A program made the translations under genes and the position numbers. From positions 3,787,501 to 3,851,500 of the forward strand of contig OZ038467.1 in NCBI GenBank assembly GCA_964036295.1: a stretch of 64,000 nucleotides of DNA, written 5' to 3'. This document shows, in pieces, positions 16,097 through 45,567 of the stretch. This DNA comes from Plumapathes pennacea (taxonomy: Eukaryota; Cnidaria; Anthozoa; Antipatharia; Myriopathidae). The notes beneath the pieces are model-generated. The model saw nothing but the letters and a program-made list of their open reading frames with translations, had not been told where the DNA came from and searched no databases. Position 1 is the first letter of the stretch, and each line of letters starts with the position of its first letter.

Positions 16097-16643
16097 TCAT
16101 TCCGAAATTTTCGAAAAAAGAGGACAACCTCGCAGGTTTTCTACCACGGTGGTTAGAAGAGTTGAGAGATCAAGATCATATCCAGGGTGCCCTTTAAATA
16201 CATCCTCTGGTGCTTCCAAGCCTTCCTTCAGAATTTCAAGAAGTTCTGAGTCTGGTTTGAGACAGTTCCCTTGGGACCATTAGTTGCTTTGCCTTCAAGA
16301 TTATGAGTGTCCCTCACTCACCATTGAACTCAGAATACTCATCGGATAAGAGCATGGGAACTTCCATTAGCCACTGTTGATCTGTTAAAACGTTGTAGTT
16401 CTCCACCTTCCTGCTTATACTGCGACACAATCTGTATAACTGTAGATCATAGTTTGGCATGTCTAACTTTTTGCTCATTTCACTTAGACCTAAAAACTCG
16501 ATTACCAATCTTCTAAATGCAGACAGATTGTCTACTTTCGTAGCGTCCTGAGGTTCTCTGCTTCTTTGCCTTTCAAAAGCACTCTCTTCGTCACTGCGAT
16601 AGAAACTCACAAGTACTTTGATCACACCAACGGAAGTCGCCAT
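16097..16643 (-). CDS. Hypothetical two-exon protein within the repeat complex
   Basis: Exon A (16643 down to 16322) starts ATGGCGACT and ends at a good donor (AATG then GTGAGT), phase 1. Exon B (16269 down to 16097) starts after CCCAAG and restores the frame, ending at a TGA. Together they give 164 residues. The product is mixed alpha-helical and charged, with segments such as VIKVLVSFYRSDEESAFERQ, AFRRLVIEFLGLSEMSKKLD and DSELLEILKEGLEAPEDVF. I recognise no domain. A further minus-strand frame at 15734-15883 (starts MAPLPLVEMAKESQQLMGDW, ends VESFLPVHV) may be another exon if the real splice leaves exon B at 16129 rather than reading to the TGA, but that donor is poor. The gene may be cargo of the surrounding repeat, or the repeat may have inserted around it. 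Confidence 0.45.
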
Positions 16644-17519
16644 GTTTCCTCTTCCAGAATCTCGCCTCAGTCTCCCGCCACTGATTCGCGTGCGCGAGCC
16701 ACCTTGATACCCAGAAAACACCGCAAAAATATCGGTTTGGGGGGCATTCAGACTGAAAATTTCATCATTGCTTTTTACAACAGACTTTTACATCTAGTCC
16801 TGTAACACTTAACTGTATTTTTTTACATAACATTTAACATTAATTTTTTTGGCTTCATAACACTTAACAGTAAAAACTTTAGGGCCATAACACTTGACAG
16901 TAAACCCCATCTAGGCCCTCTTCCATACTCAAAATGAAAACAGAAAAGGACAAAACACTTACTTGCAAATAATACAGTGTAACATAGATATTTATTCCTG
17001 TTTCGCAGTGACACACTGCAGTGTTTGACAACCTACAACCGGAGACCCGCCAACTAGGTATGTTTATTATTTATTTATTTTATTTATTATTTTCTTTGCC
17101 ACTTAGAATGATAATATATACATATATACGTAGATATACATTAAGAAATTACATAAAAAAATTCCATGTGCTAAATAGTGGCGAGGAAGCCTCAAGAAAC
17201 CATTGGGCTTATAGTGAAGAGGCCTCCTCACAATCTTACAAGATGCAAGAAGCACTTTTAGGCCAAAAATGTCACTGATAACAGTATTTGTGTACTACAT
17301 ATGGTGTATGAGAGAGTTTATTTTTTTGTAATATTTGATAAATATCATTACTTTAATACGATGCAAGAAGCACTTTTAGGCAAAAAAAATCATCTCCACA
17401 CGGCACCTTGCCCCCTTTGAACACCATTTACCAAGGTTTCCGTCAATAAACTCCTGATTGTATGAGTGCCCCTTTCCCAGGGGATACTGTTATATATAAG
17501 CCATCCTGCTGCTACAAAG

Positions 17520-24414: not shown

Positions 24415-25551
24415 TCACTTTCGTTTTTGTCCCAGTAAATAGAATTTGTCTTGTAGCTTCTTGTTTCGATCCTTCTCTTTTTCCAACTCACCGAGTAAGA
24501 TCGCTTCTTCGTTGACCAGTTTCTTAATGTGATCCTTGGCCTTTTTAAGAATAAGTACTTTCGGCGCTCGTTCGTTGTCCTTGATTTCAGGAACTTCGTC
24601 GCGAAGTGAGTGAAAGCTGGTCTTCAAATCATTGCGTCGTTTTCTCTCGAGAACATTGTGCGTTGCCCTTTTGTCGCTGTCCTCCTCGTCTGACCCCGAA
24701 TGTGTAGAGGAGGCTGTGCTGACTTGCCTCTTGATAATTTTTGCCGTGACAGGCGGAGGAGATGGCTTTCCTTTCGTTACTGCGAGTCTTAATCGCTTGG
24801 CTGGTACTACTTGTTCACTCGCTTCTGAACAGCTTCGCTTCCTGGGTTTTTCAATCGTAACCACGTCTATCTCTTCTTCTGTGAGGACAGAAATAGGACA
24901 GTTTTAGTATTATGCAAACACGATAACATTCTTTACGTCCCAACGATTAACAACGTTGCTTTTACAAACAGAAAATAAAAATTTACTAAGCATAAAAATC
25001 TTACCCGAGTCGCTGCACTGCTGAGATCCACAAATTTGCGTATCATTCATGGGGTATGGAAACACATTGGATGGATCCACACATTCTGAACTAACGTATT
25101 CCACTGGCGGAGGAGTAGAACAGGGGGTATCGTAGTAGTCTTCAATCGCTGGGGCACTGATATCACCAGACTCGTACGATGAACCGTTCCACATACAATC
25201 TTGAATGAGCTTCGATTTCAAACTGCGCGTTGATATCGCACCCTCGGACATAGCAACGAGCATTGTAGTTTGGCTTGGGTCGTCTGCAATTTCAGTGACC
25301 ATCTCCAGTGTATCGGTAACTGCGTCCAATTCAATCTCCAAGTCGAACGGAATCGGAGAATCCGGCTCCGATCTTGAAGGAGAACGCGGTGGTGTTGGAA
25401 GGAACTCGAACTTCTTCCAAATGTCAAACGTTGGCACTGTGGTGCTGAAATGCTCCCGGCTCTGTTCCTCTTCTTTGTCCGAGTGAAAGAAACAGGTTTC
25501 CTGCACGGGGAATCGCTCGAACGGCTTCAACGCAAAGTCTACTGCCGCCAT
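24415..25551 (-). CDS. myc: MYC proto-oncogene orthologue (bHLH-leucine zipper transcription factor)
   Basis: Two coding exons, 25551-25005 and 24878-24415, join in phase 1 to give 336 residues. Myc box I is at residues about 42-60 (FDIWKKFEFLPTPPRSPSR), with the TP/SP phosphodegron pair that in vertebrates controls turnover. Myc box II is at about 113-124 (SKLIQDCMWNGS), the co-activator contact. An acidic EEEIDVV block starts exon 2, PAKRLRL (about 208-214) matches the vertebrate nuclear-localisation motif, the bHLH spans about 252-303 with the E-box-reading H, E and R of THNVLERKRR, and a leucine zipper reaches the C-terminus. The protein should act as a MAX heterodimer on CACGTG sites in growth and stem-cell control. 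The intron lies just before the acidic block, the position I recall for vertebrate MYC genes. Length is somewhat shorter than human MYC (about 440). Confidence 0.97.
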
Positions 25552-25552
25552 C

Positions 25553-25651
25553 CTAAAAAGTTAGAACAGAAGTCTCAGTGAAAAGCCGGTAAAGTTTACT
25601 ACGAGTTGTAGCCTTCCTGTTGCGTAAAAGAAAAAACAAAGCACAACTTAC
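25553..25651 (-). other. Probable 5' UTR intron of MYC
   Basis: On the minus strand the MYC ATG is preceded by a canonical acceptor one base upstream (TTCTAACTTTTTAG then G-ATG). A matching donor (GTAAGT) lies at 25651-25646, giving a 99-base intron and a non-coding first exon upstream, as in vertebrate MYC. The donor is my choice among several; a GTACGG donor near 25828 is an alternative. Transcript evidence would settle it. Confidence 0.5.
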
Positions 25652-28600
25652 TAAACTGCTTGGAAATACGCCTAACAAATCCACATAAACAGCACAAGCC
25701 GAGGAGAGCTTTTACTTCTAAATCCAGTTGACCATTTAAATTCTGTAATTTATTCCGTTTCTTTCAGCGACAGAATGAATGAAAAATGCTCAGACAGCCA
25801 CCAAAACAAATCGAACAGTGCATCGACAGAGAAAACCGTACCTCAAAAATGTTTTGAAGAGCTGCAAAGCTGCAGTCGTAAAGCCTGCCGAAGTTCTTCT
25901 CTGCGGCTTCGATCGAGTGCAACGTCCCCGAGTTTCTGCAGGATGAAAAGAACGGGGCGGTGCGAGTAAGGAAATTTCAATTCTGGTGTTTCATCGCACT
26001 GCATAACTTGTAAAAAATATCCACCAATCAGATGTATGGGCACATTGATCGCCATAGCAACGTCATCCCCAAGGGAAGTTTGCACGTGACTATATTGCAG
26101 TCCCAAAATATTTTTGACACACTGTAATCATACTCTGAAGAAAAAGGTTAAGAGTTCACATTGTTCAGTTTCAAGGATTGCTTATTTCACTTCAAAATAG
26201 CTGCGATGTCAAATTACCCCTGCGGTTCGATCTGTCGAAAGTTTTTCTAACAGATTACAAGCTCATTTAAATTAATTATGAGCGTGCATTGTTCTGGTGG
26301 ATTTACACCTCGGAGAAAACATCAGACAATCATTCGCAGAAGGTGCGAAACATTGCAAAACTCTGGAAATTAGTTCGGTTGAGAAACATCTTTAACTAAT
26401 CCAGGTATTTATTTGCAAAAATGTAGATAACTGCGGAACTTCGGTCTTCAAAATTTGGGTTTATTAACGTAACACAGCTGCAATATCATTCCTGAAGATG
26501 TCTAACATTTGTTGACACTGCAGTACAATTGATTTGAAGTGAAGCTTACGGCCAGTTACATTAAATACGACCAGCCGTGGCAGATCAAGCTGCATTCAAG
26601 CCTGCAGGCAGCTGGTTTTCAGCTGTTTGCAATGCAACGCTTACCCCGGCGGTATTTTGCACTGCAGATTAGAACAATAAAATGTGGAATAACAAACAAA
26701 AAACAGGGCCAATTTATTTTTGCATAATAGCCCAGCCGGAAACCAGGTGATTAGAGGCATTTTTTCAAGGTATTGGTCGGTTGAAAAGACGCACAGAAAA
26801 AGCATTCCGTTTACATTGTGAAGCCATCTTAATCCGACCGGGACCACTGTTTTGTCTTGCAACACTGGAGTGCATTTAGAAAATATAAACACAAACACTC
26901 GTACCGTGGAATCCTGGGTAAAGAAATTTAATTCTTGGTGCCCAAAATGTGCAAAAATACAAAAAGTCTCATATAGTTTCCTCTCTCTCAGCATTTGAAC
27001 TGGAACCGGATGTTCTGGCTTTCGTAAAAACATCTAGCCAACCGTTCCGTTTGAAGTGCCGCTCCAAGAGGTCACCCGGGCCAAGCACGAGCTTTATTCG
27101 ACGTTAATCGTGCGAGCAAATAAACAAAGACAAATTAGGACTAGATAAACCAGATGACAGCCAGCAAGTCAGCAAGATTTATAATTTCAAATTTATTTAC
27201 ACGAATCGCAAGAAAATTCCGGTTTACGTGTCCTCCGCTCTTTTGCTGAATCTGTCGAGAAGTTTGCGACTCAGGATTTATGGATTGATCTAATACTGTT
27301 GTGTGTTTGATATTGAAATTAGAGAGCAATGCTTGATGAAATTAGAGATTACAACCGGCCACCCACGGCTAAAAAGACGGCTGAAATGTTTTGACAGTGA
27401 CAAACAGTTGTGTTACTTCATACTTATGTCAACTATTACAAATTTATGTCATCGGTAAAAAACAAAAACGGAAATAAAATTTCATGCGAGATGCGATCAT
27501 GTTGTTTACAGAAATGTGCCGCTTGTCAAGACTCCACCTCGCTTGTATGCATTGCCGGATATTACCGATATGCAAGGATGTACACTCTTGCCACTTGAGC
27601 TTTTGTGTTTTCGTTTCGGTTTTATAGATATTGAGTCAAGTGCCGCAAAGTTTATGTGGATATTTTTTCTCCCTCTTCGAAGTTCGCTTGCAGTGGGTGT
27701 GCAAAATTCTTATCACCTCTAACCATGTTGTTATCTCTTTGTAGTTTCATTTCCTGACTGAAGCGGAACCCCATGGAAAGCTAGTTGTGTTTGTAATTAT
27801 CTTAATTCAGTCTCCTGTCTCCTACAATTCAAAGTGAAAACAGGAAAAATATAGAGAGCATTTAGCTGAATATGTAGCCCTCAACAGAACTGCCTGGAAT
27901 TTGATAATAAAAAAAAACATTGTGGAGAAACTGTTTCAAGCAAAGAAATTATTGAGAAGAAAAAGAAAAAAGAGAAAAGAAAAAGAAAGAAGGAGAAAGA
28001 GAACAAAAAACACGACAGTGTGCCAAAGCAAACCAGTATAGCAACATCATAGTCCGCTTCTCGAGTTTCACTTTGTGTAGACTGACATAAGAATCAAAAA
28101 GTTTCGAAAACGAACCGCTTTCGAAACGGCACGTTTTTTTCTACCGAATCCAAACATAGTCTAAACGATCGAAAAAAACGCACGCTTATCGAACTGAAAT
28201 CGCAACTTGTAATCAGGTATCCACGGTTTTGAACCCTTCAGATACTACAGACAGTTTGCAAGTTTATAAAATATTAACAGTCTGCTTGTTAAAGGCTTGC
28301 GTGTTTTTACCCACCAGGTGTTCCATTTTTGTCAGTGATTTGAAGCTCAGGCGGAATCGGAAACTGGTAAAAAATTGTCCGGGTGCAGAACAAAACATTT
28401 CGACAATGAACGACAGCTCATCCTGTTAGTATAAACATTACCATTTTCTCCGCTTCGCCGACTTCAAATGTAAAACTTCACCTGTTTTGGTTCGGTTTCA
28501 AAGACACTTTCAACCGTAAACACTCGGCTAGATAACGAAATCGGCCATAAGTGAAACCGAACCGACAGCTTTCATACATTCTTGAATTGCGTGCAGTGGA

Positions 28601-31600
28601 CGGTCGACCCCGCTCGCACTTTCGTCATAAAAGTAATCAAAAACTTCCTTTCTGTTTGGGGAAACCTAATATTTGACCTTTACAATTTATAAATACCCGC
28701 ACCACAAGGGGCCTGGCAGCTGACTGCACTGTCTGAAAAATAAAATGTTTGGGACTTCGAGGAGCTTTGAGTTCTCTCTCGCCCTGGAGCTTTCATTGGC
28801 AGGATGTTAACGCAGACTCCCAAGGTGTGAAGAGTGGTTGAATTTGCGGCGGCTATCGGACAAGCACGTGAAGGGTTTCTGTTCACTGATTTTCCCGCCA
28901 AATATTTTATGACAGCTGATACTCAAGGTCGTGGTAGAATGAAATCACTGCACGTACAGCTGAAGTCTTTTTCAGTTTCGAAAGTTCTGAGGAACATTTT
29001 CTAATTTTCTACTTCCTTATTGTCACGTGAACCCATTTGAAAGTAGCTGACTGAATCAGAAGAGAATATAAACGGTCAAAATTTAACTTCGCTTTCGAAC
29101 AGTCTATTGCTGATCAATATTCAAGTACTGCACAAACGGCGTTGTCACACTTTTGATTGATTTTGTGGTTTGTAAAATGTAATGGTGTATTGGTTCGCGT
29201 GGGAACTGGGCTGTCACGCGGAACGAGTTTGAGGCCTTAGAGCACAAACAAATGTCTCTTACATTGGTCCGTCGTACCGAACAAAATGGCGATGCCAACC
29301 TATCCGGCAGTCAAGTCTGGTGGTGATGGTTCAATCAAGCTTGGTAAAATATAAGACAAAGACTGCTGGGAGGCATACATAATACAGTGGCAGTTCAAGG
29401 TTGGCACACTTAACACACAAGGCCAATGTCTCTGTCTGTGTTGTGAAGTGTAAAGTTGGTAAACACAGCTACCCGTTATCTAAAATATAGTCATGGTCCC
29501 GCTTAGTTTTTCGTAGCACAATAAAAATGGCGTCACAAACCTGTCAGTGAAACAGAGAGTTTCTTTCGAAGCTGTAATCTGGAACTCACTCAAATGGCAT
29601 GAACAGTTTTATAGTTCACTCCGGAACTGCGACATTCGCCTTTCAAGAGCCTCTGAGGTTACGTGACAGATAATCAGTTCAGATTGTCCCGCCGAGCCAA
29701 TAGGCAAATCAGTCCACATATTTGATGATACCCAGGACAGCGCATAACGGCTTTACTGTAATCACTTTCAGACTAATTCACGATTAATATAAACATGAAT
29801 ATTATCCCCCTGGATGTCGGTCTTTGACATGGACTTCATTAAAAAAAAAAAAAAAAAAAAAAAACGTGAGCACTGCTTTATACGGTTGAGGTAACGCGGT
29901 GACTGCCGACGGTTGAACTGAGAAAGTTTCTCACCTATTACTGCTACTGGGCGACCGAACTGGGGTTGACTTGACAACAACTTGACAGCGCAGTGTTCTT
30001 GTGAATTTAGCAAAACAAAGTAGAAATAAAGCTTGTTTATTAAACCAGCATGACTGTACGACTTAGGAATGAATTTAGGGCCCTTCAACGATCAGAGTTC
30101 AAGGTTAAGAAGCCGAAATAAATGACGTGCCATCCGCAACTCGAAATTTCTGCCACCTATAAATAAGACTGGAATGTGAGCTTAAAGTATCAGTCAGTTG
30201 AGCCGATATCCGACGGTCCTTATGGTCCCTCAGTGTCTATCTTTTCCCAGTCTCTTTTTCTGTCGTTTGTCTCAAGTGCACTGAATGTCTCGGTCACTGT
30301 CTAACTCACGGAATCCGACATTTTGGCCGAAATGTACGGCCGGACAAAAAAATGGGCAGCTCAGATTGCTACACCGAGGCCTAACCCTGAACCTTTTTAA
30401 TAGCCTTTTGTCCGGTTTCCTCACTTGCGGACCGGGCAGTATTACATGCAAAGCTGAGCTTTAATTATAGTTAGTGGCACTGCTTTCCTGCTGTAAAAAT
30501 TCAGCTCATTATGAAAGTGAGAGAAAAAAATGAGTACTTTCTTCCCTCTGACGGACCGCAAACGAGCTCAGCGGATCATGAAATGTGAACACACTTCGCT
30601 GCCAGTTAACGATCCGATATCTGCAGATATAGTATCGGCTGAAGGAAGTCAGCAACACAAACCCAGTTTTCCACATATCACTAATGCCGTACCCATTTCA
30701 ATGTTTATGAAACTAAAGAATACGACTGGCTTATCGTAAACTCACTCACAGGAACTACAGCGAGTTCATAATCGAAAATTGTCCTCATAGCTCAGACATG
30801 ACTCGGTCTTGAAAGTGAGCGACTTCTGTAAAAGGCCGTGGAGTGACCACTTGTGTTTCATTTTTGGATTACTATGCGCGTTGAATGATTAAACGGTATT
30901 GCTCAGTGACATGATTGCTGTCGACACTGGTCAGTGAATCCTACAACGGTGAATCCGCCCCGATTCAATAAGCCGCTCTGTCTGTTGTAAATGGTTGTAA
31001 ATGTAATAAGGCCGATTTAAACGGTGCATGCAACCTTCTTTGTACTGTGTAATCAAACGAGAAGGGATTTGACTGGGCGTCACTGAAATTGAGCCAGTTA
31101 CGACAACTAAATCAGTGTGGTGTTGTATGTTGTTGATCAAGACTGGAAAATAATGCTGATACTACACTCTATCTACATGGGAGGGCCAGGTTGGTTTCCA
31201 CAGACAACTTCACTGATTTAGTTCTGTTTTGCTGCGTATAGCTGGAAAAGCGCGGGAACCACAGCCAACTTGCAGTTTCCACTACTCAGCACTCGAGAGA
31301 TAACTGTTAGTTGCCTTTTCAGGATGTCAATAATTTTGTCTGGATATTTGAGGCCGAACAAGTAAAAGTATAGAAAACTGAGGCCGTTTGCAAATAAACT
31401 TTCATAATTTACTCCTGTCCGGACTGTGTGAATGAATTACACAACTCCTTAAAGCTCGTAGTCTGGCAACATTGTTCAGACATATCTTGTTATGAGCGGA
31501 GTTAGTGTTTCGCATTTTTATAAATATCGGTGAAGGATATGAAATACATGCTATGTCGCCCAAAATGTCAAGTGCGTCTTGGCGGGCCTCTCGCTAATCC

Positions 31601-32099
31601 TAAAAATACACTGAGTTTATGAGTTCGATGCAGTCGGCCAAAATTATGCAGAAGGAACCGCCAAATTGGTCAGGGGAGACAAAGCAAAAATATCAGAAAT
31701 CTAACGGTGACAATAAGACATGTGACGACCACCATAGTTTCCATATTTCTTATCCCGTTTACAAGTGGTCTTGGTTTCTGAAAATAGCTCACCAACGAGT
31801 AATTTTAAGATGTCTAAAAGGTCTCTTTAACGGCCCAACTCACGCAAAATATTAATAGCGAGTATTGAGGGGTTGCAAAGTCAAAATAACTTTCCGCTGG
31901 TTTGGCTGGTGAATTTCATGCCCTTCCTTCGTCTGCAAGGCAGATGCTGGATGTGTTAAAACTCTCTACTAGTTGATATGGACGGCCAGCCCTGAGTTTT
32001 GATACTAAACCAGCTGTGCCTAGCCCTGTAGTGCAAGGACTTTTAATGGGCCCAATATTACTAAAGTTGTCTCAGGGCCGAAAATCTCAGCCGATAGCG

Positions 32100-32375
32100 A
32101 AATTGACAAAACCCAGAAAATTCCCAACTCATGAACTGTCAAAAGCAACCTCAGCGAAGGGTCTCTGTGCGGAGTACATTTATAAATGACAGTGTTCAGT
32201 TCCAACTCCTGAACTGTTAAATGAAAATTCAAGGTGGGACCACTCAAATAAAGCTCTCAACGAGCACATTCTAATAGCAGTGTTCACTTCCAACTCCTGA
32301 ACTGTCAAATAGAAATAAAGGTGTGACCACTCAAAGAATGCTCTCGACGAGTACATTTGGAGCGGTGTTCACAGT
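32100..32375. repeat. Three-unit minisatellite (unit about 85-95 bases)
   Basis: Diverged units share CCAACTCCTGAACTGT (variant CCAACTCATGAACTGTC in the first), GACCACTCAAA and CTCT(C/G)xxCGAG-TACATT segments, at about 32110, 32205 and 32290. The two right-hand units are most alike. Confidence 0.7.
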
Positions 32376-34247
32376 TTTTGCATTTTTAAGTTCGTAAACT
32401 TTTTGTTTTAGCTTCAATATTTAATAATGCGGAAACCGTTGAGCCATTTTCCCACAGACGATTTATATACGTCTATAACTAAAGGGATATACGCCAATGT
32501 ATTCTACAGTTGTTTAGACATTTTGATTATTGTTAACTTCTCTTGCTGTTAGTTTAAATATTCCCACTAGTAACTTTATTGCGTTAATCGCTTCCTTCAG
32601 AGAATGTTAATCCGTACAGCTTGGCCCTAGTGATGAAATAAACTTTGATCGACTATTTCATATTTGAGAAAAATGTTGTTGTTTGAAAATTATGTCATAC
32701 CGAAAGGGTTATTATTGGATAATGTCATAAAGTCAACACAGTTTAGATGAAACATTCGAACACCGTTGTCGCAACTAGGCAACTGAGAGTGAAAAATGCG
32801 CGAAGTAGCTGGTGTTCCCGCAGTAATTTCTTGGCAACTAGTGTTGCGACTCCTCAGCTGGAAATTCCGGCTTTCACAACTGGGCCTGAAAGGCTTTACA
32901 GCTTTAAATGAAGCAGGCAACTGAGCTGCAATTCCATCCGCCGACCACTTTAAAATAATCCGCTTTTTAACACTAATAAATACAAGATTATGCTTTCAGT
33001 TGTATGATTGTGATCACGACATCATGAACAACCGTTTCAAGGGGCGGAGAAAATCAGAGCTCAACTGAAACGTGAACATTTACATCGGCACGGCTTGAGT
33101 GTCACACCCTCGGGTTTTGTTTGACGTTGAGGTTCAGAAGTTAGAAGTATTATTGGGTCAAGTCAAAATGGCCTTCAATGGCGGGCTATATAGACTTACC
33201 GTCTTCGCCGTACCAAAACCATCCGAAAACAGTGATAGTATCGAGACCTGATGATGATGATGGTAACTTTATTTTAACTCGGGTTGTTGGGGCTTATAGG
33301 CCTCTTGCAAAAGAATGCTAATATACCGAGTAAAGAAGGTGTTACATGTAATATATATAATGACTAATTTTTGTGTTGACGTTTGGCAGTCGGCAGTGGC
33401 GGCTACTTATTCGTGAAATACTTAAAGCGATTAAGTTGAAACAGTCGGCTGAGTTATTATAGTCTGCAGGCATGCTGAGCCACTTGAGGACTGAATAGCG
33501 TTTCGCAAATGTTCAGCTGAAATAGCTAAACAGCGTCGGAGTTTTACTAAACTGGAAGAAGAAAGAAAACTCATACACGACTGATATGAATGAGCTGAAT
33601 CTTGGAACTCTTCACGCTGAACTGCAGCTCTTTCTGCCCCCTTTTTAATAATGTCGTTAAAGTCAGTATGCCAGTCAGTTGGCTTCTCTGGGTTGAGGGA
33701 GAAGTCGACTGATACTCTAGGTATCAACTGTGTGTTGATGAGGGTAATGGAACGCCGTGAAAGAGGCAATAGCTGACGTTTCGAGCGCTAGCAGAGCGAA
33801 AGGCTAATTGGAGTGCAACAGGCATTGGAGTAAAATAAAACCACGTAACCAGCCGATTTTTTTTTTTCGCTCTCACTCGGCCTTCACTAACTCCGGCCTC
33901 ACTCCGCAAAAATAAATACTCACGGGAGTGATGTTTTCGGTGTTCAAACCTGGCTGCTGAGTCCTCCACTGTAAGACTGTAGCGTGTGCGTCAAATCAGT
34001 GTTGGCCGTTGGCCTGTTCTTCTTATATACGATTTAACTTTGAGAGAGCTGGTAACAAATTCTGTCATGGGGCTCTTCAACTCACACGGAAAAGGCGCTC
34101 AAGAACGCGACAGACCGTCCGACTCAGTAGTGATTATAGTTTATCGATCCTGCCATTAGTTGGTTTTAACTGCCGGTTGAATCCCTCGTAACACCCCGAA
34201 CCTGGCACCGAGTCCGGCGGACCGTCTTGAAAAATCAGATTGAAACA

Positions 34248-34419
34248 CAGTAGACTGCCCGCTATCTCGAACCTTCAAGTGAAGCGAGAAATAGTTCGAG
34301 ATAGCAAAGGAATCGACATAGCGAGGTGCTACAAAGGGGAATTTCTGCCAAGTTCAATTCCAAGGGAAATCGAATTCTGTTCCAGATAGCGGGGAGTTGG
34401 AGATAGTGGGGCTCTACTG
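34248..34419. mobile_element. Small terminal-inverted-repeat element (MITE), possibly pogo/Tigger-like
   Basis: The left end reads CAGTAGACTGCCCGCTATCT and the reverse complement of the right end reads CAGTAGAGCCCCACTATCTC. Internal sequence repeats the theme (TTCGAGATAGC, CCAGATAGCGGGGAGTTGG). The length is about 172 bases with no transposase. CAGT-type ends with CTATCTC sequence resemble pogo/Tigger-type elements; flanking TA duplication is not clear here. Confidence 0.6.
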
Positions 34420-37400
34420 TAGTATATTTATAGTAGTAGAAGCTAGAAGACCGGTTCGATAGACACACGGTCCTGAGTGAAAATAGTGAAGGAGTTTGAC
34501 AGAGTGAATAGAATTGACAAGATCGTTTAAACTTACTCAATGAGAGTAAGAAAGAAAAACAATCTTTCGGACATGATGGTTAGAAGTGTGCCGGATTCGC
34601 AAAAGAATTCGCACATACGTTCCACAACACCTTCTGATGTAGCTTGCACTATGCTTTATATTCCGGTAACTTTTATTTTCATTACACTGATTTGGAACTG
34701 TTTAGTCGGTAAACTATTCTTTTTTCCGGCCTTAATTCCTTAATAGCCACTCAAGACTCTGAAGAGCCAAAATTGGATTCCTCGCCGCAATGCATCGGAT
34801 CTTTCGTCTCCCTTTATACTTCACTGTACCGTCTTCCTGTTTCAATTGAGTCGGGTTGTATGACAATCATAAATCCGGATGTGACGGTGAAGTGCAACTT
34901 CCTGAGATTGCAAGCAAAGATAAGGAACATTGTGTTGGGAAAAGCCGCTGGAATTTTGCAATTGTTTGCTTTAAAACGGACCTTTACCCCCCAAGTTTAA
35001 TTCCGTCAACAATAGTAAAACCAGGGTGTGTCCGGCTGTTTCGTCGCGGGTTGCGTGCCGTAATGTTTGTTTTATGTCAGTTTGTTGGATCAAGTTTGGT
35101 TTCCGTAGATCACACTCCGCGTCTCACACAACCAAAATAATTGAACTTTACCGAAATCATACCAATCATTCAAAATTACTATACACAAGCTTTTCCTAAA
35201 TGTGTCACCACGATGGTAAAGATGATCAGAGGAGAGCTGTACATTTTAAACTATTTTTAAGAAAAAGAAAAAAAATCTTGTTTTGTAGTCACTCTAGTGC
35301 TATTTTTTCAGAAGAAACGTTTTTCGCCGTTTTTCGTATTAAAATTTGTTCAGTCCACTGCGTTCAATGTTGGCTTTATTGTGTGGCTGCAGAGTTTAGC
35401 ATTTAATGACTGTGATGTTTGTCAGCTGATAATTTTAGTTATCAACCGAACGTAGTAAGACTCAATAGAAAAAGACGATATGGGAGGTATTACTCACAGC
35501 AATGAAAAAAAATGAACGCCCAAACTAGCAACAACAACAAAAAACAAACAAACGATCATCTTGTGCACGGAAAGCTAGACAGACAAACACAGACACCAAG
35601 CTGGACAAACAACAACCTCAAAGATCAGACCACACCGACGCACTCACACAGAGCATAATCACGGGCGGCTTGGAATACACTATCTGTAAACAATCTCTCT
35701 TCAGCACCTCATTGCTTGGAAACTAAAAGAATTAAGAATATGCTGCCAGTTTACTGTATCAAAACGAAGATCACTTACAATGAAAACAATCTCAGTTTAG
35801 ATAGATCTTTTTTAAGCTTGATTACGAGGCCAAAATTTGAATCGATGTGTGGCTTTACCTCAGCTGGTCAAGCGCGACACTAGATAAACACACACCGAAC
35901 GAGTTCCTAAGTTTCTATGTGCGTGATGTTTGCTATTTGTTTACACAGAACTGAAGGTGTGCACGACTTGAGCAAGTCGACCTACGGCTGGGAAACCGAG
36001 ACTACAAAATCTTCATTTAGTCACTAAACGTTGAAAGACAGGAAAGGCTAAGGCCAAGGCTAAAGGGCGAATCATTCGTATCGACAAAGGGGACCACCTG
36101 TTTCCAATGCACGAAGTTTGTGTGCAGCTTTCAGTAAAACCAAATATCTAAAGGGCTTTCTTCAAGGCACAGCCAGTGTGAAAAATATTCTGTACAGCAC
36201 GAACCTATGAAAACAATGGTTTAAAGGTTCCCTTATGCAACTTTCTTATGACTGACTGTACCAGATACACCGATGGGGTCGACAGGAAGCAAAACCACTC
36301 AAGTCTAGACACAAACACATGCTTGCAATTTGCTCGACAACCGTAACGACAAAAATCCGAAAGTTGAAAAGCCGAAAATTGCTGACAAGGACACAAAATC
36401 AGTCAGTATTTGGTTTCAGGCTGCTTGGAGAAAAGGGTGATTAATCTTGATCTAGGCAAACGCTTTGCACTAAGCATAGCGTGACAAAAGAACAGAAAGG
36501 ATGACTGTTTCGTTGTTCGGTACACGGATCACTATGGTAAAATATTAAGGCGGCAAGGAAGTCCGCGGCACTTCAGTTCTTGTGCCAAGAGTGTCACCAT
36601 TTCTAATTAAACGAAAAATCAAACGAAAACATCCATAGGCTATTCTAAAAACAGAAAAATATTTAAAACATATCTTAGAAGGCAGTCAACCTGCAGTTTA
36701 GAGCCGCTTTCTCTTTTTCAGCCGACCGCGCAAACATTGGGGGAATGGGTCAAATTTCCCTCTCACCCCAGGCCCCCCTCCGACATTTTTATGCCGGGGT
36801 ATTCTGTAGTTTAGCAACCAATTTCTCAAGCCAAAATATGCTACCGCTTCAGTCTGTCATAAGAAATTCAGAAACATTTCAATACGTTTATACTGAGAGT
36901 GAAACCATCCTCTTCCCCAGGCTTTTCTCCTACCCCGCCCACGTTGCCCGAGGGGCAAGGTAGGGAAAAGAGCTTGGAAACGAAGTTATTACGTGTACTG
37001 TAAGCGAGACACGCGTTCCCTTTTCATTTGCAAAGTGCTTTTTTAATCTTTATGGCAGAATTTTAAGATAGTCCGACAAGAGGATTATCACAATATTTTA
37101 CCTCGAATTATAAGAAGTTAGATGGTAGTGGGAATGAATGCTGACCAGCGGAAGTGACGTCAAGAACGTATCTCCACGGTGTTGGTATCCCTGGAGTGAT
37201 CAACTTCAAACTTCTCCTTCAGTCTCTCACTATATATATATACATAATGCAAAATGGAGAATTTGGTATTTTATAGCTTGCTCAGATAACCACTGAGTGA
37301 ACAACTAACTCTCGCTTCATCACACAGTTGTTTTTAAGTCACTGGGAGAATTTATATCAAGCATTGAACACATAACAATGCATAATATTACAAAACAATT

Positions 37401-37871
37401 GTCAATCACAGCCCTACATGAAGGGTGATGGGAACAGGGATTTCACATTTGATAAAATGGCATACAGTAGTCTCGTTCCCCAGAACTTACTCCCTTTTAC
37501 CTGATGAGAGGGACTGGGGATATGAGAATTCCTAATCCATGATGTCACAGGCTGATAAAAACTGTGGGATCTGAGAATGAGACTTTAAGTTTCTCTTGTG
37601 TATCTGCTACCTATTGCCTATTATCAATACAAAACTATTGGTGTTCTAAAAATTTTCACAGGAGCCTGGGTGCCTATATTTTCACACTCCAGACTGACGG
37701 AAAAATACAAATCACTGAATTTTTAAATAGGGCACTAGGTTGAGTGAATCTCACTGGACAAGAAGGGCACGGACATTCTTTGGTGTAGACTCATCATTTA
37801 AATGTTTCGTGGTATACCTGATGTGGGAATAAGAAAGAAGGTATTATTGCTGTGCACAAATATGTCTCGCT

Positions 37872-37873
37872 CT

Positions 37874-37909
<36 letters not shown>

Positions 37910-38175
37910 GTCAGTCAGTCAGTCAGTCAATCAATCAATTGGTCAGTCAGTCAGTCAATTGGTCGATTATTGATTGGTCAATCAGTTATTCAATCAATCA
38001 ATCAATCAATCAGTGAGTCAATCAATCAATCAGTCAGCCAGCCAGCCAAACAGTCAGTCAGGCAAGCAATCATTCATTTATTCATTCATTCATAAATTTA
38101 TTCAATCAATCAGTTAATCAATCAGTTAATCAATAAATCAATCAGTAAGTCAATCAGACATTAAATCAGTCAGTC
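37872..38175. repeat. (CAAT)n/(CAGT)n microsatellite
   Basis: Tetranucleotide ATCA/GTCA units run for about 300 bases with decay toward the right. The open frame rich in Ser-Ile-Asn-Gln across it is an artefact of the repeat. Confidence 0.95.
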
Positions 38176-38323
38176 ACTTGATCAGTTAATGTCAATTAGT
38201 TAATCAATGAGTTAGTGAGTGGTCAGCAAATCAGTTACTGAGTGAGAGAGAGAGAGAGAGACTGAGTGAGTATAACAGTCCAATCAGTTTGCTTATCTGT
38301 GCATATTTCTGAAGCCAAAGTAG

Positions 38324-38338
38324 TTTATTGTCTTTATT
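38324..38338 (-). terminator. Candidate polyadenylation signals of CYRI
   Basis: On the minus strand two AATAAA hexamers (38338-38333 and 38329-38324) lie within 20 bases after the proposed CYRI stop codon. Their position supports the choice of terminal exon but implies a very short 3' UTR. Confidence 0.5.
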
Positions 38339-38343
38339 ATCCT

Positions 38344-41300
38344 TCAAATATTTCCTCTTGCAGCGCAAATAATGGCGTGGAAACTGTGAAGCTTTTTAGT
38401 GCTTTCTGGAACTGCTTTTTTGACCAATAAATTGATGTCCTCCTCAGTAGTCATCTTGTAATGATTTTTGTGACTAAATAAATAGAACTGTGTTCGGATA
38501 TTGTCAATAAAAAGCGTTAGTTTTCCAGGCGGGGGTTATTCACTGATAACGTCCGCTCACGAGCGAGACGTTATTTGGTCACGTGTTACGATTCTACCAA
38601 TCACGTGCGGGAGGAAATATTTGATGGGTCATAAAGTACTCATAGTTGTAATAAGTAACAGATGTGACTTGTGACTTACCGTAATGCATTTAGAAGGCCA
38701 TCTACACTTCCCTGTGGCTGTTCTTTTAACACTTTTATGGACCCTTTCATCTGCAAGAACACAAAAGCAAATTCATCAGAGGGCATGCATAGATGTTTAT
38801 GGATATTAGAGTATGACAAATAAACGGTAATTGTGAACAAGTTGAACTGTCGGTAAGTGGTCGGTATACGATTTACCGACCACATGCCGACCACGCGATT
38901 GACTTTACCGACCACATACCGACCACTCAAAAACTTTTACCGACCACTTACCGACCACACTTTTTGCTACGTATTTTTTTCCGTTCTCTTTTCTTTTTTA
39001 AGAATTGAAAGCAAGAAAGACCGTTTGATTTATTCGCGATGTGATTTGCACGTGTGCTGTAATCGATGTGCGTGAGCAAAATCAGTCTGGTTGTCGAAGT
39101 GAAGTTGTCATTGACTTTTATTGAACTTGGTGGCATACCAACACTGTCGAAGGCCTCTGGAGTGCTGTGAAGCGAAAGCTGAAGCGGATGAACGGCACTC
39201 GCTACGATCGCATCCCAGAGTACCTTGACGAGTTCATGTGGAAACGGCAATTCAATCAAGACCGGTTCCTTTCAATCATCGAAGACATCGCCGCAGGCTA
39301 CTAATGGCTTGCAACTCATAACAACGGCTCTTTTAAGAGCCACCACGTTAATAAAAGTGAATGATTCATCTAGCGCTTCAATTGAACGTTATCCGAAATG
39401 AAAAACGCTACCGACCACTTACCGACCAAACCTTTCACTTTACCGACCACATCATAAATCTTACCGACCACATACCAACCACTTACCGACCATGTTACCG
39501 ACCACGCTACCGACCACGTTACCGACCACATACCGACCACATACCGACCACATACCGACCACTTACCGACCACATACCGACCACGTTTACCGACCACATA
39601 CCGACAGTTCAACTTGTTCACAATTACCCAAATAAACAGACAAACTAACAAAACTGTTATGCTCTGTAACCCCACTCTACATTATTTTACTAACTTACAT
39701 CTATGGTCGATGTTTTTACGAAGGCTCCAACTGGGTGAACATGGTCATAAAGAATTATGACGCCAACCTAAGAAAAACAACTAGTAGTTTGTCAAATGGA
39801 AATGAATGAAAGAATGAATCAAACAAACAAACTAAACTACAAAAGCTTTGTAGCTCAGGAAGTTCCAATATGGGATTACTGTCTGGAAGTTGTATACACA
39901 CCAAATTTTGTGATCGCATAGGTCGACTACATCTGTCAGCTGCTTTCATTAGCAAACACTGACAGCAAATAAGAAATGATGTAAAACTGTCTAAATATAG
40001 TAACAGAAAATGTGTGATCACATAATAACTCACCATTACTCGGAGGCAGAACAAAATCGTTTCCTCGTTTTTAAACCTTGTCTTAAAATCCCTGGATGTG
40101 AGGAGGCAAAAACAAAAAAAAAAAAAAAAAAAAAAAAGAAAAAAAGAGAGGTCTGCATAAGACTGCTAGCTATGACTGTATATATTCTATAGCTACATAG
40201 TGAGAGTTCCAGCAATACTTCATTTCATTAATTTTTTTAAGAACAAAGTGAGACCATTTCATACGAAAGTAGTCTTTCTGTACACTGTATACATTAGACA
40301 ATCAAGCCTGGCTTTCACAATACCCTCCTACAACGTGTACAATGAAAACAAACAAAGATGAACACTTACGGATTTTCTATCATTGCTTTGCAGAGAGTTG
40401 CTAAAGTACTAAGGCAGTCTGTTGTATTCTCTAATGGAATACTTTTGTTCTGCAAAGTGAGGAATGCGTATTGGTAAGTAAACAATAACATGTCACCTTT
40501 GCATGACCCCAATCACATCAAGAAGCCCTGGAGCTTGTTATGATAATAGTAACACAGAAACTAATTTCTGGCCATTGGTAAACTTACATTTATGTGTATT
40601 TAAATGGGAACTTACCTCTGTCACAAACTTTGTCGTAGCATCACTTAGAGTTTTGAGCAAAGGGGTTGGGTAGGCATAGAAGAGTGACATCTTATTGGCC
40701 ATTTCATTTGAAACCTGCATCCCACATTTATCATCATCCTGCAATACAAACAACATGGTTGATGAGGTTTAGTGGTACAGTGAACTCCCTCTGAGATGGA
40801 CGACACCATCGGGACCATCTATAACTGTCTGTTTTAGAGGTGTCTATCTCAGTTAGAGTAATAATGACAAGAAACAGTAGGGAATGCTCCTATCAGGTGT
40901 CCATCTTAAAGTGTCCATCTTACAGGGGTGTCCATTTAGAGGGAGCTGACTGTACTTTTTTAACAAACAAATAAACTACAGCATGTCAACCAAAGTGATT
41001 ACCCATACGAAATGTTTTTTTTTTTTTAAATTTGGAAACAAGGTATTAATTTAAGTGACCGTACAGCGTATTTCATCCACTTGAGTAAAAGTTGTGGTAT
41101 GCAGTATTTGGGGATGCTTTCTGAACAAAGTATGGGGTAAATGAAACATTTACCAATTAAAGCCATGTTGAAAACATGGTTCCTTTATCAAGCATGCATA
41201 TCTGAATGTAGGTAATATTATGTTCACTTTACAATGCACAAAAAGTCAGATTATTAACAGCACTGTACTAAACTCACAACGTTAGCCATTTTTCTTCTGC

Positions 41301-43840
41301 TTAATGTCCTCCTGTAGTAACTGAAGTCATTTTGAATAGCAGGATTTGTCATCTGAAATCAATAAAATTAATTTAATTCTGGACCTGTTATAAATTTTGA
41401 TTACTTCAAAGAAGTGTACATTTTAGGAGCACAGTTGACCAATTTCCACACAAGTATCCCAAATATCTACTACAGTAAAAGCTGGAACTGGATACACAAT
41501 AATTGAATATTGCATAACATAAAACAAGATGTAAATAAAAGACCAAAATAAATTATTACCTTGAGGTCATCAAACTTGAGTGTGAAATGAAGAATTTCAG
41601 CGAATTGTTTTGCTAATGCCTAAAACACAAAATACAAAGGAATAATTTTACTAATGCAGATATACATTTTGGTACCAAAAAGTGGTACATTGTTAGATAT
41701 ATTAATAGGGACAATTGAAGGGCTTGGTGTGAGAAGGACCTACTGTACTCACATCTACAAGTTACTGTTCCTTTTAAGAAATCTCAGGGACAATTGTTGT
41801 GTTTTCAGGATGCAGTTTTTCTGGCTTAACATTCCTCATGCCAATTTGTCTACCAACCTGAGTAAGTGACTTAACCAATTTGGGTGTTTTTATGAGCAGA
41901 CGAGTGATATTTGATCCAAGTAATTTATGCATCTGAACTGAAAACACATCAATGATGGCAGACAATGGAGAAGCTTACAAGTATATTGCTCTTGTGTTCA
42001 TTGCTGTTTTATCGCGCTTACTCTTTATTCGATGGAGGAAGAACTTTCAGTGAAGGCTTAGGTTGCTTACCATGAGAAAGAGAATTGAAGCTTCTCTCTT
42101 AGAATGACTTCAGTCGAAAAGGCAGTTATCGTGGGTCGAAGGAGAAAAACAGTGTGGGTTCTTGACAGACCGCAATTTTGGCTTGAGCACATGGTACTAA
42201 CCAGTACGAAAATGGCATATGGCGCGAGCATTTTCGAGACAAACCTTTCGCTTTCTCTGCAATCTAGTTGTGCCGCATTTGATTCGTCGGGATACAAACA
42301 TACGGCAAGCAAAGAAACCACAAGAGTCAAATTTCCGATTTGACAGCTCCCGTCAAAAGTTTTAGTTCAATAGACTCTCATTGGTGGAAATTAATTTCCG
42401 ACAAGCACGACCTCGTTTGGTGGCTTAAATATTTTCGCTTTTTACATCAAATCTCTACCCGCTTAACTTTAAGCGAGTTGGAGAGGCAGCTGTTTTCATG
42501 AGATTTCCGGAGATCACTCGCTAGGCGACTAAAAAAATCGCTCATGAAAACACAGCCAATGTACAATATGTTGAAATGCACTTTACAACAATTAGCAGGT
42601 ATGAGATTGAGCCTGAAAGCATTGAAGGTGCCTCTGGCTTGAGCTACAGGTATATGGTTCATGTATGACTGATTCTCAGCTTCTGAAAATGCCCAATCTT
42701 AAAAAATCTTAAAAAAAAATTTATCCAGAGTCTTGTGTCTTTGGTGATCACACATTTGGAAACCAGTCAGTTTTGCTGGATCCGCCCTTGTAAGGTATTT
42801 GGTAGAGGACGGGATCCAACCAACAGAGAGATCCCCCTACTATTTTTTAATTGTGTGAGTTCTGTGATCTGGTTTAGTGAAGGGGTAATGTCAATCCCAC
42901 CCAATTAGTGCATCCCCAGCCAAGAATAAATTGAACACAGGCCGTATTGATGGGAGACCAGTGTCTCAAAATTAAATCATCATCATCATCTCGCCATCTG
43001 AGCACCTCTAAATATTGTCACTTAGGATTTTACTCTTTCATTCCAAAGCTCAGAATAAAATTCTCCTAATCATTTGATAGGAAAGTGTATAAGTGATGTT
43101 CTGGGAACAGTTATATTTTAGAGCAAGCTATCAAATGCCAAGTTCTCCTTGCTGTATGATACATAGAGATTACTTCATGGAAAGTGCGCGCGTACGGTTT
43201 TTATTCACGAGTTGTGAAGTATCATAAAACGAACGAGCGAGGCTTTGCGAGCGAGTGAGTTTTATGATACGAAACAACGAGTGGATAAAAACTGTACAAA
43301 GCACTTTCCATGATGTTTTCTGTTTATTATATACATACTGAGACATTTATGATGGGACCGGGAAACCCTTTAAAAGTAGTGAAAAATCGTCGTTCGCAGC
43401 TTGTGATTGGACGAACGATTTTTTTCACGTGTGAAAAGCGTTGTTCGCGGCCTCTCATTGGCTAGAACTCATTTGCGTACGAAATTTTACGATATGGCTT
43501 TTTCGTGAGTATGTCTCAGTATGTATATAATAAAGTACTGTACAGTATATATATTGCTTGACAAGTAAAAAACTGAAAGAGAAATCTGAAGTTAGTCACA
43601 CTGGGAGTGAAACGGTTAATACCCCAAATGGAACCTTGTTTCATAGACAGCAGTTTACCTGTTGTCTCTCCAGGTGTTCAATAGGTGCTTCTGACCCTGA
43701 ACAGAGAGCGTATAGTAACTGTGGAAGGACCGTTTCTGTAAAGGTAAACAGACAAGCAGCTGTTTAGGTTATTCCTAACAGGTTGGCAAGTAGAGGACAA
43801 TAACAATAATAATAAAAATAATAATAGTAATAGTAATAAC

Positions 43841-43914
<74 letters not shown>

Positions 43915-45567
43915 TAACAATAATAACAACAATAATAAGCTGCATTGCTATATGGAGTGTCATCACAAGAAGCAACTTTGCCTTGCCTGGACATCTACGC
44001 ACCCATCACACTAAATAAGTCAGTGGAAGAAACAGCATTTTCAGATAACTTTCACAAAACTAAAACCAAACTTGAATTACTGTAATTACAGTGTGAATCA
44101 TGTAAGAAAATACTTCAAGTATTGATTGAAAGTGTCCATATCCTCACCTAGTTCCTGAGCATATTCATAGAATTTCTTCAACTTTCCCACAAGAGGTAGA
44201 ACTGCTCTCCATGCAAGATCTTGAAGAGCTTCATCCGAGGGATTGGAGATTGCCTGCAGTGAGGTAACACAATGTCAGCCTTCTCATGGCTGAGCTGAAC
44301 ATAGCTTTCCACTACTAGTGCAGTATCCCATGAAGGCCATGTGAGAACCCTGTGAATGTTTGTAGCATTTTCATAGCCTTTCCATATGAAGACCCCATGA
44401 AAGTGAAAATGTTTAGGATATGGAGAAAGCAAATCCATAGATTGCCTAACTAGTGCTATCAACTTATAACACCTTCACCACTCCTCGTCAGAATTCAATA
44501 GGGTTAAACCCAAGATATCACCTGTCTAATCTCTTGGTTGGCTCCAGGATAACTTGCTAACTCTTCAAGGATTGCTGGTGTGTTATCAAGGACTCCACTG
44601 ACAACATCAAAAACCTCCCTTTCTGAATCTGTTGGAGCAGCATCTGTTTAAAACAATATTGGGAATGCACCATAAATGCATTTAGCATTGAAACTGGGAA
44701 GACCTGGTTACCTCACAAGAAATCAGATCACTCTCTAATATGCATACATGAAACCCTTTCACATCCAAAGCTTATAATATAAATTCTAACAACCATATAA
44801 GAAGAAAATACAGTAAATGAGTGGTGGGATAGTGAGAACTAATTGTTCAATCAGCTTTTGAACCTACACTGCATCTAATATCAAATTCTCCATAATATTA
44901 CACATCTAGTGAGTGACTAAAAGAGAAAAATAACTGAAGTTGATCACTCTGGAGTGGAAGGATTGAGTTATTGAGTATATTATGCCACATTATTATTGCC
45001 TGATTGCTTACTTTTGTTTGGCATTTCTTATGCATGTCTTTTGATTGGTTGAGGTGAATTCTGTAGCATTTTCAAGCCAATCCAAAGTAAAAGCAACAAT
45101 TTTGTGACATTTTGTTGATGGTTGGTAATATTACTCATCTTGTTATAGCACTGTTCGAATGACTGTTGAAAACCAAAACCAAAGCAATCACAGAGCCAAT
45201 CAATGAAGCGAGCAAAAAACACATCAGACCAATATTAGAAGTCCGAGCAAAACCAAAACCAAGTAATTGCAATTTGGTTTTACAAACCAATCAGCAGTGT
45301 GAGAACACGCCATCGCGAATTGCTTTCTTGTGTGAGGATATCACAACCACGTTTTGCTTTTGCTCTTAATTGGCCAAGAATGTTGCTAAAGTTGTTAGGA
45401 TCAATCAGAAAGCATAGCAAATGCAAAACCAAAGCAATCACATGATTACTTTCAACAGTCATCCGAAAACGGCTCTATGCGTCAAACTTACTTTCAAAAT
45501 CTAAATACAGATCTAGCCTGGAAGCCTCATCTCCCTCTCTGCTCAGCAATTTAAGAAGATTTCCCAT
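38344..45567 (-). CDS. cyri: CYRI (FAM49) orthologue, Rac1-binding inhibitor of the WAVE complex
   Basis: Twelve exons join in frame: 45567-45492, 44643-44522, 44253-44148, 43735-43659, 41619-41560, 41352-41278, 40738-40616, 40449-40370, 40091-40034, 39767-39699, 38750-38680, 38473-38344, giving 348 residues. The start MGNLLKLL keeps the N-myristoylation Gly2. Family blocks include [90 protein letters not shown] and [19 protein letters not shown]. The Arg pair at about 161-162 corresponds to the Rac1-contact RR of mammalian CYRI-B. The protein should sit at the plasma membrane and limit Scar/WAVE-driven actin protrusion. The last exon (42 residues) is the least certain: it resembles the usual short tail only loosely and is about twice as long. 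A Merlin element sits in intron 10. Confidence 0.95.
38826..39628. mobile_element. Merlin-type DNA transposon, non-autonomous copy with 9-bp target duplication
   Basis: The 803-base element is bounded by the same 9 bases, CAAATAAAC (38817-38825 and 39629-39637). Its 30-base ends are perfect inverted repeats beginning GGTAATTGTGAACAAGTTGA. About twenty TACCGACCAC-type subterminal repeats lie inside both ends (38855-38960 and 39410-39600), inverted relative to each other. The centre encodes the C-terminal part of an IS1016/Merlin-class transposase. Merlin elements have 8-9 bp target duplications, so ends, duplication and coding remnant agree. It lies in intron 10 of CYRI. Confidence 0.88.
39125..39304 (+). 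pseudogene. C-terminal fragment of a Merlin/ISXO2-type transposase
   Basis: Fifty-nine codons and a stop read [18 protein letters not shown], then [11 protein letters not shown], the end of the DDE domain in the IS1016/Merlin family. The Glu of HTNTVEGLW is probably the third acidic catalytic residue. Upstream, the frame is closed by a TGA and the first two catalytic aspartates are missing, so the element cannot make its own transposase. Confidence 0.85.
40778..40952. mobile_element. Tigger/pogo-like MITE in CYRI intron 6
   Basis: The left end reads CAGTGAACTCCCTCTGAGAT and the reverse complement of the right end CAGTCAGCTCCCTCTAAATG, flanked on both sides by TA. Internal copies of GTCCATCTTA/GTCCATTTA repeat the end theme. 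At 175 bases it has no coding capacity. TA target sites with CAGT...CTCCCTCT ends are typical of Tigger-like elements. Confidence 0.75.
43174..43316. mobile_element. Inverted-repeat element in CYRI intron 4
   Basis: The left arm reads CATGGAAAGTGCGCGCGTAC then TTTTTATTCACGAG. The reverse complement of the right arm reads CATGGAAAGTGCTTTGTACA then TTTTTATCCACTCG. The middle holds facing ATCATAAAAC copies around GAGCGAGGC. It abuts a second element at 43321. Confidence 0.7.
43321..43535. mobile_element. MITE with TTTATTATATACATACTGAG ends
   Basis: Near-perfect inverted ends of about 24 bases (TTTATTATATACATACTGAG at left, the same reverse-complemented at 43511-43535) enclose about 165 bases that also contain facing CGTTCGC/TTGTTCGCGG segments. 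There is no coding capacity. It inserted within or beside the adjacent inverted-repeat element. Confidence 0.75.
43798..43937. repeat. (AAT)n microsatellite
   Basis: About 140 bases of AAT/AAC trinucleotide lie in intron 3 of CYRI. On the minus strand it reads as poly-Leu, poly-Tyr or poly-Ile depending on frame; none is real protein. Confidence 0.97.
45140..45480 (-). repeat. Dispersed repeat family 1, copy 2 (best-preserved)
   Basis: Read on the minus strand the copy starts GCCGTTTTCGGATGACTGTT, continues with GATTGCTTTGGTTTTGC and AACATTCTTGGCCAATTAAG, GCGATGGCGTGTTCTCACAC, and ends TTTGGTTTTGGTTTTCAACA then GTCATTCGAACAGTGC. The two ends share GAATGACTGTTGAAA/GGATGACTGTTGAAA as an inverted repeat, so the family looks like a non-autonomous DNA element of about 330 bases. 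It lies in CYRI intron 1. Confidence 0.75.

What the first reader, a model, noticed from the sequence alone, without database searches (positions are those of the whole stretch)
24415..45567. MYC and CYRI are direct neighbours, mirroring the vertebrate MYC-CYRIB and MYCN-CYRIA linkages
MYC (24.4-25.55 kb) and CYRI (38.3-45.6 kb) are adjacent with no coding gene between them. In human, CYRIB (FAM49B) lies in 8q24.21 with MYC, and CYRIA (FAM49A) lies in 2p24 near MYCN. Two independent paralogue pairs plus this single-copy pair suggest the linkage predates the vertebrate genome duplications and possibly the cnidarian-bilaterian split. Gene orientation differs: tandem here, facing in human as I recall. 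A coding-poor gap separates the pair in both. A long-kept linkage across a gap can mean that MYC enhancers reside in or near CYRI.
Basis: partly seen in the sequence, partly recalled or inferred. Interest (0 to 1): 0.85.

Follow-up and report, generated by a model that had tools for sequence, protein, structure and literature searches.

The report
Cancer gene MYC beside CYRI
In this invertebrate chromosome an intact MYC gene sits directly next to an intact CYRI gene, the same two genes that are neighbours in vertebrates, which suggests a very old pairing although no third animal group could be checked here.

Summary
Both point the same way, CYRI first, with 12.2 kb between them and no recognisable coding gene. 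A profile search found CYRI only here in the 290-Mb assembly. MYC is not single copy: a second gene with Myc boxes and three more diverged MYC-like genes lie on another chromosome. The vertebrate neighbourhood is documented in passages seen here (Myc, Gsdmc, Fam49b, Asap1; DDX1-MYCN-FAM49A). New: four other human-8q families (ASAP, KCNQ, TRAPPC9, TPD52; human places recalled) lie on contig C10, while MYC and CYRI lie on C6. So a shared ancestral chromosome alone does not explain the pair, and no wider synteny backs it. Random adjacency is about 1.6e-4 for an assumed 25,000 genes, before allowing for post-hoc choice. I judge ancestral linkage likely (0.78), resting on two lineages only. The enhancer reading is untested: motif counts in the gap give no support, and the gap is not unusual for this window.

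The parts
25005..25551 (-). MYC first coding exon with Myc box I (EFLPTPPRSPSR), box II (LIQDCMWNG) and a box IIIa-like stretch (ECVDPSNVFPYPMND)
   Evidence: Pfam Myc_N E 2.4e-23, sequence; box names recalled
24879..25004 (-). MYC intron, 126 bases, GT-AG; the splice joins SDS|EEEIDVV
   Evidence: same place as the vertebrate MYC exon 2/3 junction, as recalled
24415..24878 (-). MYC last coding exon with bHLH-leucine zipper and stop
   Evidence: HLH E 1e-13; MYC chains are the best solved relatives
25553..25564 (-). Possible splice acceptor (CTAACTTTTTAG) one base before the MYC ATG, suggesting a non-coding first exon in the gap
   Evidence: sequence; inferred, no transcript data
25552..37750 (.). 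Interval between MYC and CYRI, 12,199 bases
   Evidence: Pfam scan of 138 segments; motif counts; repeats
37751..45567 (-). CYRI (FAM49) gene, 12 coding exons: 45567-45492, 44643-44522, 44253-44148, 43735-43659, 41619-41560, 41352-41278, 40738-40616, 40449-40370, 40091-40034, 39767-39699, 38750-38680, 37817-37751
7356..11568 (+). NOL4-like gene, left neighbour (limits approximate)
   Evidence: NOL4 helical domain at 9874-10140, PF23079 E 1.4e-32; HTH exon 7404-7925; the 11383-11568 exon had no Pfam match and is assigned by eye, recalled
51299..57789 (+). SYCP2-like gene, right neighbour (limits approximate)
   Evidence: SYCP2_SLD PF18584 E 2.1e-9 at 54899-55198; other exons had no Pfam match and are assigned by eye, recalled
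32172..32372 (.). Copy of a dispersed tandem repeat (87-base unit) within the gap
   Evidence: 122 scored matches in the assembly

Best explanation
MYC and CYRI were neighbours in a common ancestor of this animal and vertebrates, and this window keeps that pair. Shown: two complete adjacent genes, with CYRI found at one locus only. Inferred: ancestry, because vertebrates have the same pair as neighbours while the other tested 8q24 neighbours lie on another chromosome here. Why it was kept is inferred and untested. On present evidence plain slow decay of an old two-gene block is slightly the likelier reason (about 0.42). Shared control DNA is close behind (about 0.36): MYC's regulatory elements would be spread over the interval and perhaps the CYRI introns, so that breaks between the genes were selected against and CYRI is a bystander or border gene, as in a genomic regulatory block. 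The confidence given is for ancestral linkage, both reasons together.
For: Intact genes and adjacency. CYRI matched only at this locus. Random adjacency of one CYRI to either of two MYC loci is 1.3e-4 to 2.2e-4 for 18,000-30,000 genes, numbers assumed. Vertebrate neighbourhood: Myc, Fam49b and Asap1 named as neighbours in a synteny analysis whose legend speaks of 18 vertebrates, the figure itself not seen; Myc, Gsdmc, Fam49b, Asap1 listed in mouse; DDX1 to FAM49A around MYCN. ASAP and KCNQ exons lie 70 kb apart on C10, TRAPPC9 and TPD52 also on C10, so MYC-CYRI behaves as a unit of its own. For the control-DNA reading: in a sponge 43 of 60 confirmed conserved gene pairs hold enhancer-like signatures (PMC5429095, passages); Nematostella has 166 loops, and non-looping enhancers in four animals including Nematostella lie a median 5.6 kb from promoters (PMC12221973, abstract and section 7).
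Against: Two lineages only; no other invertebrate checked. Orientation differs from the convergent human arrangement (recalled), so at least one inversion. MYC is multi-copy here, and bHLHZ identity does not single out the C6 gene (39, 39 and 38 of 79 to the MYC chain for C6, L017, L020). None of ASAP, KCNQ, TRAPPC9, TPD52, EFR3, NBAS lies on C6, so no wider block supports the pair. Seven motif classes counted in the gap show no convincing excess; TCF sites are fewer than expected, 9 against 14.8. Sea anemones show poor microsynteny and no clear TADs (PMC10719294, passages). The gap is of ordinary size for this window.
Confidence: 0.78

Rival explanations
1. Ancestral linkage kept without selection: the pair is old, but no shared control DNA holds it; two-gene blocks simply decay slowly. 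(This and the control-DNA reading are the two halves of the best explanation.)
For: Blocks of two genes did not differ in number between clades, only longer ones were reduced in cnidarians (PMC10719294, passages). No motif enrichment in the gap. The changed orientation (human side recalled) and the ordinary gap size argue against a rigid architecture.
Against: The pair stayed together while ASAP, KCNQ, TRAPPC9 and TPD52 lie on another chromosome, and vertebrates keep it across a gene desert (recalled).
Confidence: 0.42
2. Coincidence: MYC and CYRI became neighbours independently here and in the vertebrate ancestor.
For: One species only; the pair was noticed after the fact in a genome scan; none of ASAP, KCNQ, TRAPPC9, TPD52, EFR3 and NBAS lies on C6, so no wider synteny backs it.
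Against: Chance of about 1.6e-4 for this named pair at an assumed 25,000 genes, and CYRI has one locus only.
Confidence: 0.18
3. Assembly artefact joining two loci.
For: None found; no read data were available to test it.
Against: No N in the window; both genes lie inside a 23.4-Mb contig.
Confidence: 0.01

Closest known systems
Vertebrate MYC-CYRIB (8q24.21) and MYCN-CYRIA (2p24) neighbourhoods
   Same: Same two gene families as neighbours with few coding genes between (passages).
   Different: Tandem here, convergent in human (recalled); 12.2 kb here against about 2 Mb and 0.6 Mb in human (recalled); ASAP is not next to CYRI here but on C10; Gsdmc is listed between them in mouse.
Ancient metazoan microsyntenic pairs (Irimia and others 2012; e.g. 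Isl-Scaper)
   Same: A regulator beside an unrelated gene, shared by distant animals.
   Different: Shown here in one invertebrate only; no enhancer evidence; the Irimia paper is not held, so whether it lists this pair is unknown.
Genomic regulatory block with bystander gene (e.g. wnt7-atxn10, PMC8851819 passages)
   Same: Possible architecture: regulator MYC, bystander CYRI.
   Different: Conserved non-coding elements and chromatin could not be tested.

Membership tests
MYC transcription factor | Myc N-terminal region and bHLH-leucine zipper in one gene | tested here: met
   Myc_N E 2.4e-23, HLH E 1e-13; MYC chains beat MAX and MAD among solved structures
CYRI (FAM49) | Full-length CYRIA/B Rac1-binding domain with N-terminal MGNLL | tested here: met
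   301 of 301 profile positions, E 1.5e-142; 216 of 323 aligned residues identical to CYRI-B
Ancient conserved microsyntenic pair | Adjacent in one lineage and neighbours in a distant one | tested here: met
   Adjacent here; vertebrate neighbourhood from paper passages
Ancient conserved microsyntenic pair | Also linked in further independent phyla | not testable with these tools
   No other animal genomes in the collections; bacterial genome contigs scanned with CYRI and viral contigs with MYC gave no relative
Ancient conserved microsyntenic pair | More than a by-product of a shared ancestral chromosome | tested here: inconclusive
   ASAP, KCNQ, TRAPPC9, TPD52 on C10, EFR3 on C3, NBAS on C7, none on C6; 1 of 8 LRAT matches on C6, about 5.7 Mb away
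Genomic regulatory block | Enhancers of the regulator lie in or across the bystander | not testable with these tools
   Only motif counts possible; seven classes in the gap, no convincing excess
Genomic regulatory block | Conserved non-coding elements across the interval | not testable with these tools
   No related animal genome to align

The most novel reading that the evidence does not exclude
The MYC gene-desert architecture is older than vertebrates: a MYC-CYRI unit, with MYC control DNA reaching towards CYRI, existed in the ancestor shared by this animal and vertebrates and changed chromosomes as a unit, while the rest of human 8q24 (ASAP-KCNQ and others) came from a different ancestral chromosome.
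Probability: 0.35. Interest if true: 0.8.

Novelty: new member of a known kind. Interest (0 to 1): 0.52.

Why it matters
MYC in mammals is controlled by many far-off elements in a gene desert that ends near CYRIB (recalled). If the MYC-CYRI pair is older than vertebrates, that layout would have a much older root, and a compact 12-kb version would be open to direct test in an animal with short intergenic distances. The split of human-8q24 families between two chromosomes here also gives a testable history: a MYC-CYRI unit and an ASAP-KCNQ unit joined in the line to vertebrates, or separated in this line.

Tried and rejected
Tried without result. Scanning bacterial genome contigs with CYRI (29 pattern stretches, no relative) and viral contigs with MYC (8 pattern stretches, no relative) for stray animal sequence. 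Motif counts for seven factor classes in the gap against 200 first-order resamples: no convincing excess; CREB 1 against 0.17 and ETS 6 against 3.7 are within what several tests give. Bacterial-type promoter scan: not informative for an animal. Rfam at gathering scores: a histone 3'UTR stem-loop in a CYRI intron and a weak tRNA at 50.8 kb, nothing in the gap. Ten paper searches, several with capped lists: no listed title or opening of an abstract concerns MYC-CYRI/FAM49 linkage outside vertebrates. That is a statement about these searches of an open-licence library only. Irimia 2012 is not held. Term searches of the main text of four synteny or chromatin papers found no Myc and no Fam49; their supplements could not be read. 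A YTHDF family search (PF04146) met a busy machine once and was dropped.

Considered and rejected: assembly join (no N, deep inside a contig); MYC really being MAX or MXD (Myc_N present, MYC best among solved structures); the two vertebrate pairs as independent evidence. Choice of markers: NBAS, TRAPPC9, EFR3 and ASAP were chosen first as 8q24/2p24 genes; TPD52 and KCNQ were added after three of these had come out off C6, LRAT last; all seven are reported. Of 69 HLH matches only the window's, the four on C2 and one at C6:4.76 Mb (not MYC-like by eye) were looked at, so further MYC-like genes are not excluded. Low-complexity segments and segments under 42 aa were dropped before the gap scan. 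Human gene distances, strands and chromosome places are recalled.
Full report
What is there. The window is G000:C6:3787501-3851500 of a 290-Mb assembly in 24 contigs; it holds no N. MYC is encoded on the minus strand in two coding exons, 25551-25005 and 24878-24415, joined across a 126-base GT-AG intron. The 336-aa product has Myc_N (E 2.4e-23) and HLH (E 1e-13), and the bHLHZ exon matches solved MYC chains better than MAX or MAD. The splice joins SDS|EEEIDVV, the place of the vertebrate exon 2/3 junction as I recall it. An acceptor-like CTAACTTTTTAG ends one base before the ATG, which would fit a non-coding first exon as in vertebrate MYC (inferred).

CYRI is encoded on the minus strand in 12 coding exons from 45567 to 37751, all 11 introns GT-AG. 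The 327-aa product covers the whole CYRIA/B Rac1-binding profile (E 1.5e-142) and is identical to CYRI-B chain 7ajk at 216 of 323 aligned residues. Exon 4 was one of three candidates with the top splice score; it was chosen for its resemblance to CYRI, and the protein then aligns through it without a gap.

Both genes point the same way, CYRI first. The interval is 12,199 bases. Of 138 stop-free segments of at least 42 aa overlapping it, one gave a weak Pfam match of the kind chance gives. It holds a copy of a dispersed 87-base tandem repeat with 122 scored matches in the assembly; only 39 of 4606 first-look candidates were scored in that search, so nothing follows about the rest of the gap. 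A gap of this size is not special here: from the last NOL4 exon seen (11568, assigned by eye) to MYC is 12.8 kb, with one unassigned 135-aa open frame in it. Neighbours are a NOL4-like gene (PF23079 E 1.4e-32) and an SYCP2-like gene (PF18584 E 2.1e-9).

Copy number. A CYRI profile search of the whole assembly gave five matches, all exons of this locus, from 12 scored candidates. Myc_N gave three matches at two loci, this one and C2:34.949 Mb. The C2 gene has Myc_N (E 8e-13) and an HLH exon, and three further bHLHZ genes whose best solved relatives are MYC chains lie within 34.93-34.99 Mb of C2; two of them match weakly (34.6 and 35.2 bits). In a 79-residue bHLHZ stretch the C6 gene and two C2 genes are equally close to the MYC chain (39, 39, 38 identical); the C6 gene scores best in the N-terminal region (83.9 against 49.3 bits). 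So MYC is not single copy, and which copy is the direct counterpart of vertebrate MYC is not settled.

Vertebrate side, from papers. [quoted passage not shown] its legend speaks of 18 vertebrates (PMC9403048, passages, figure not seen). Mouse list Myc, Gsdmc, Fam49b, Asap1 (PMC5774710, table passage). FAM84B, GSDMC, FAM49B and ASAP1 are listed as 8q24.21 genes (PMC7865353, passages). The region around MYCN is described as from DDX1 to FAM49A (PMC3879166, one passage). Human distances and strands in this report are recalled.

Wider synteny, a new result. I placed seven further families in the assembly. ASAP: C10:5.340 Mb, its three best solved relatives being PYK2-associated protein beta, UPLC1 and ASAP3, which I recall as ASAP-type ArfGAPs. 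KCNQ: C10:5.410 Mb. TRAPPC9: C10:13.29 and 13.46 Mb. TPD52: C10:1.85 Mb. EFR3: C3. NBAS: C7. LRAT domain: 8 matches, 1 on C6, about 5.7 Mb from MYC (whether it is an LRATD gene was not tested). Of 10 ArfGap matches three lie on C6, but by eye they are SMAP, ARFGAP1 and GIT types. Human places of these families are recalled. So four human-8q families share C10, 5.8% of the assembly, with the ASAP and KCNQ exons 70 kb apart, while MYC and CYRI share C6. This speaks against the pair being a mere by-product of a shared ancestral chromosome, and it also means that no wider conserved block supports it.

Chance. For one CYRI and two MYC loci among 18,000-30,000 genes (assumed numbers), random adjacency is 1.3e-4 to 2.2e-4. 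The pair was noticed after the fact in a scan, so this is not a P value for the finding. Set against it, deeply conserved gene pairs are a documented phenomenon: 80 were reported and 60 confirmed in one sponge (PMC5429095, passages). My judgement, not a computed result, is that a pair with this property is more probably old than accidental.

How it may work. In vertebrates MYC is controlled by distant elements between it and CYRIB (recalled). Here the MYC promoter faces the CYRI 3' end over 12.2 kb, not far beyond the usual reach: non-looping enhancers in four animals including Nematostella lie a median 5.6 kb from promoters, loop-forming ones 31 kb, and Nematostella has 166 loops (PMC12221973, section 7), though another study found no clear TADs and poor microsynteny in sea anemones (PMC10719294, passages). 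Motif counts in the gap gave no support. I therefore hold ancestral linkage as likely (0.78); plain retention (0.42) is slightly ahead of control-DNA constraint (0.36) as the reason.

Limits. No other animal genome could be searched. Expression and chromatin data are not available.

Noticed in passing
G000:C2:34.93-34.99 Mb (L021 257-2263 +, L017 6878-8194 +, L020 3378-5296 +, L024 4885-6090 -): Cluster of four MYC-like bHLHZ genes on another chromosome; L017 carries Myc boxes like the window's MYC, L021 and L024 are far more diverged.
   Followed up: partly
G000:C10:5.340 and 5.410 Mb (L037, L036, L038): ASAP and KCNQ exons lie 70 kb apart; both are human 8q24 genes (recalled), so this is a second candidate ancient linkage.
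   Followed up: partly
window 39321-39366 +: Histone 3'UTR stem-loop (RF00032, 37.1 bits) in a CYRI intron, on the opposite strand; no search for a histone gene beside it was made.
   Followed up: no
window 38872-38958 and 39409-39605: Two arrays of an 11-base TACCGACCACT-type repeat in CYRI introns.
   Followed up: no
window 32172-32372: Copy of a dispersed 87-base minisatellite family found on many contigs.
   Followed up: partly
window 1149-1538 -: CARD-domain exon (PF00619 E 6.2e-19) at the left end.
   Followed up: no
window 7356-7922 +: Tc5/Psq-type helix-turn-helix exon (HTH_Tnp_Tc5 E 3e-14) on the same strand as the NOL4 domain exon; possibly its N-terminal part.
   Followed up: no
window 16314-16721 -: 135-aa open frame between NOL4 and MYC with no Pfam match.
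   Followed up: no
L026 (G000:C2:34971801-34980599): Open frames that by eye resemble reverse transcriptase and recombinase of a retroelement, inside the MYC-like cluster.
   Followed up: no
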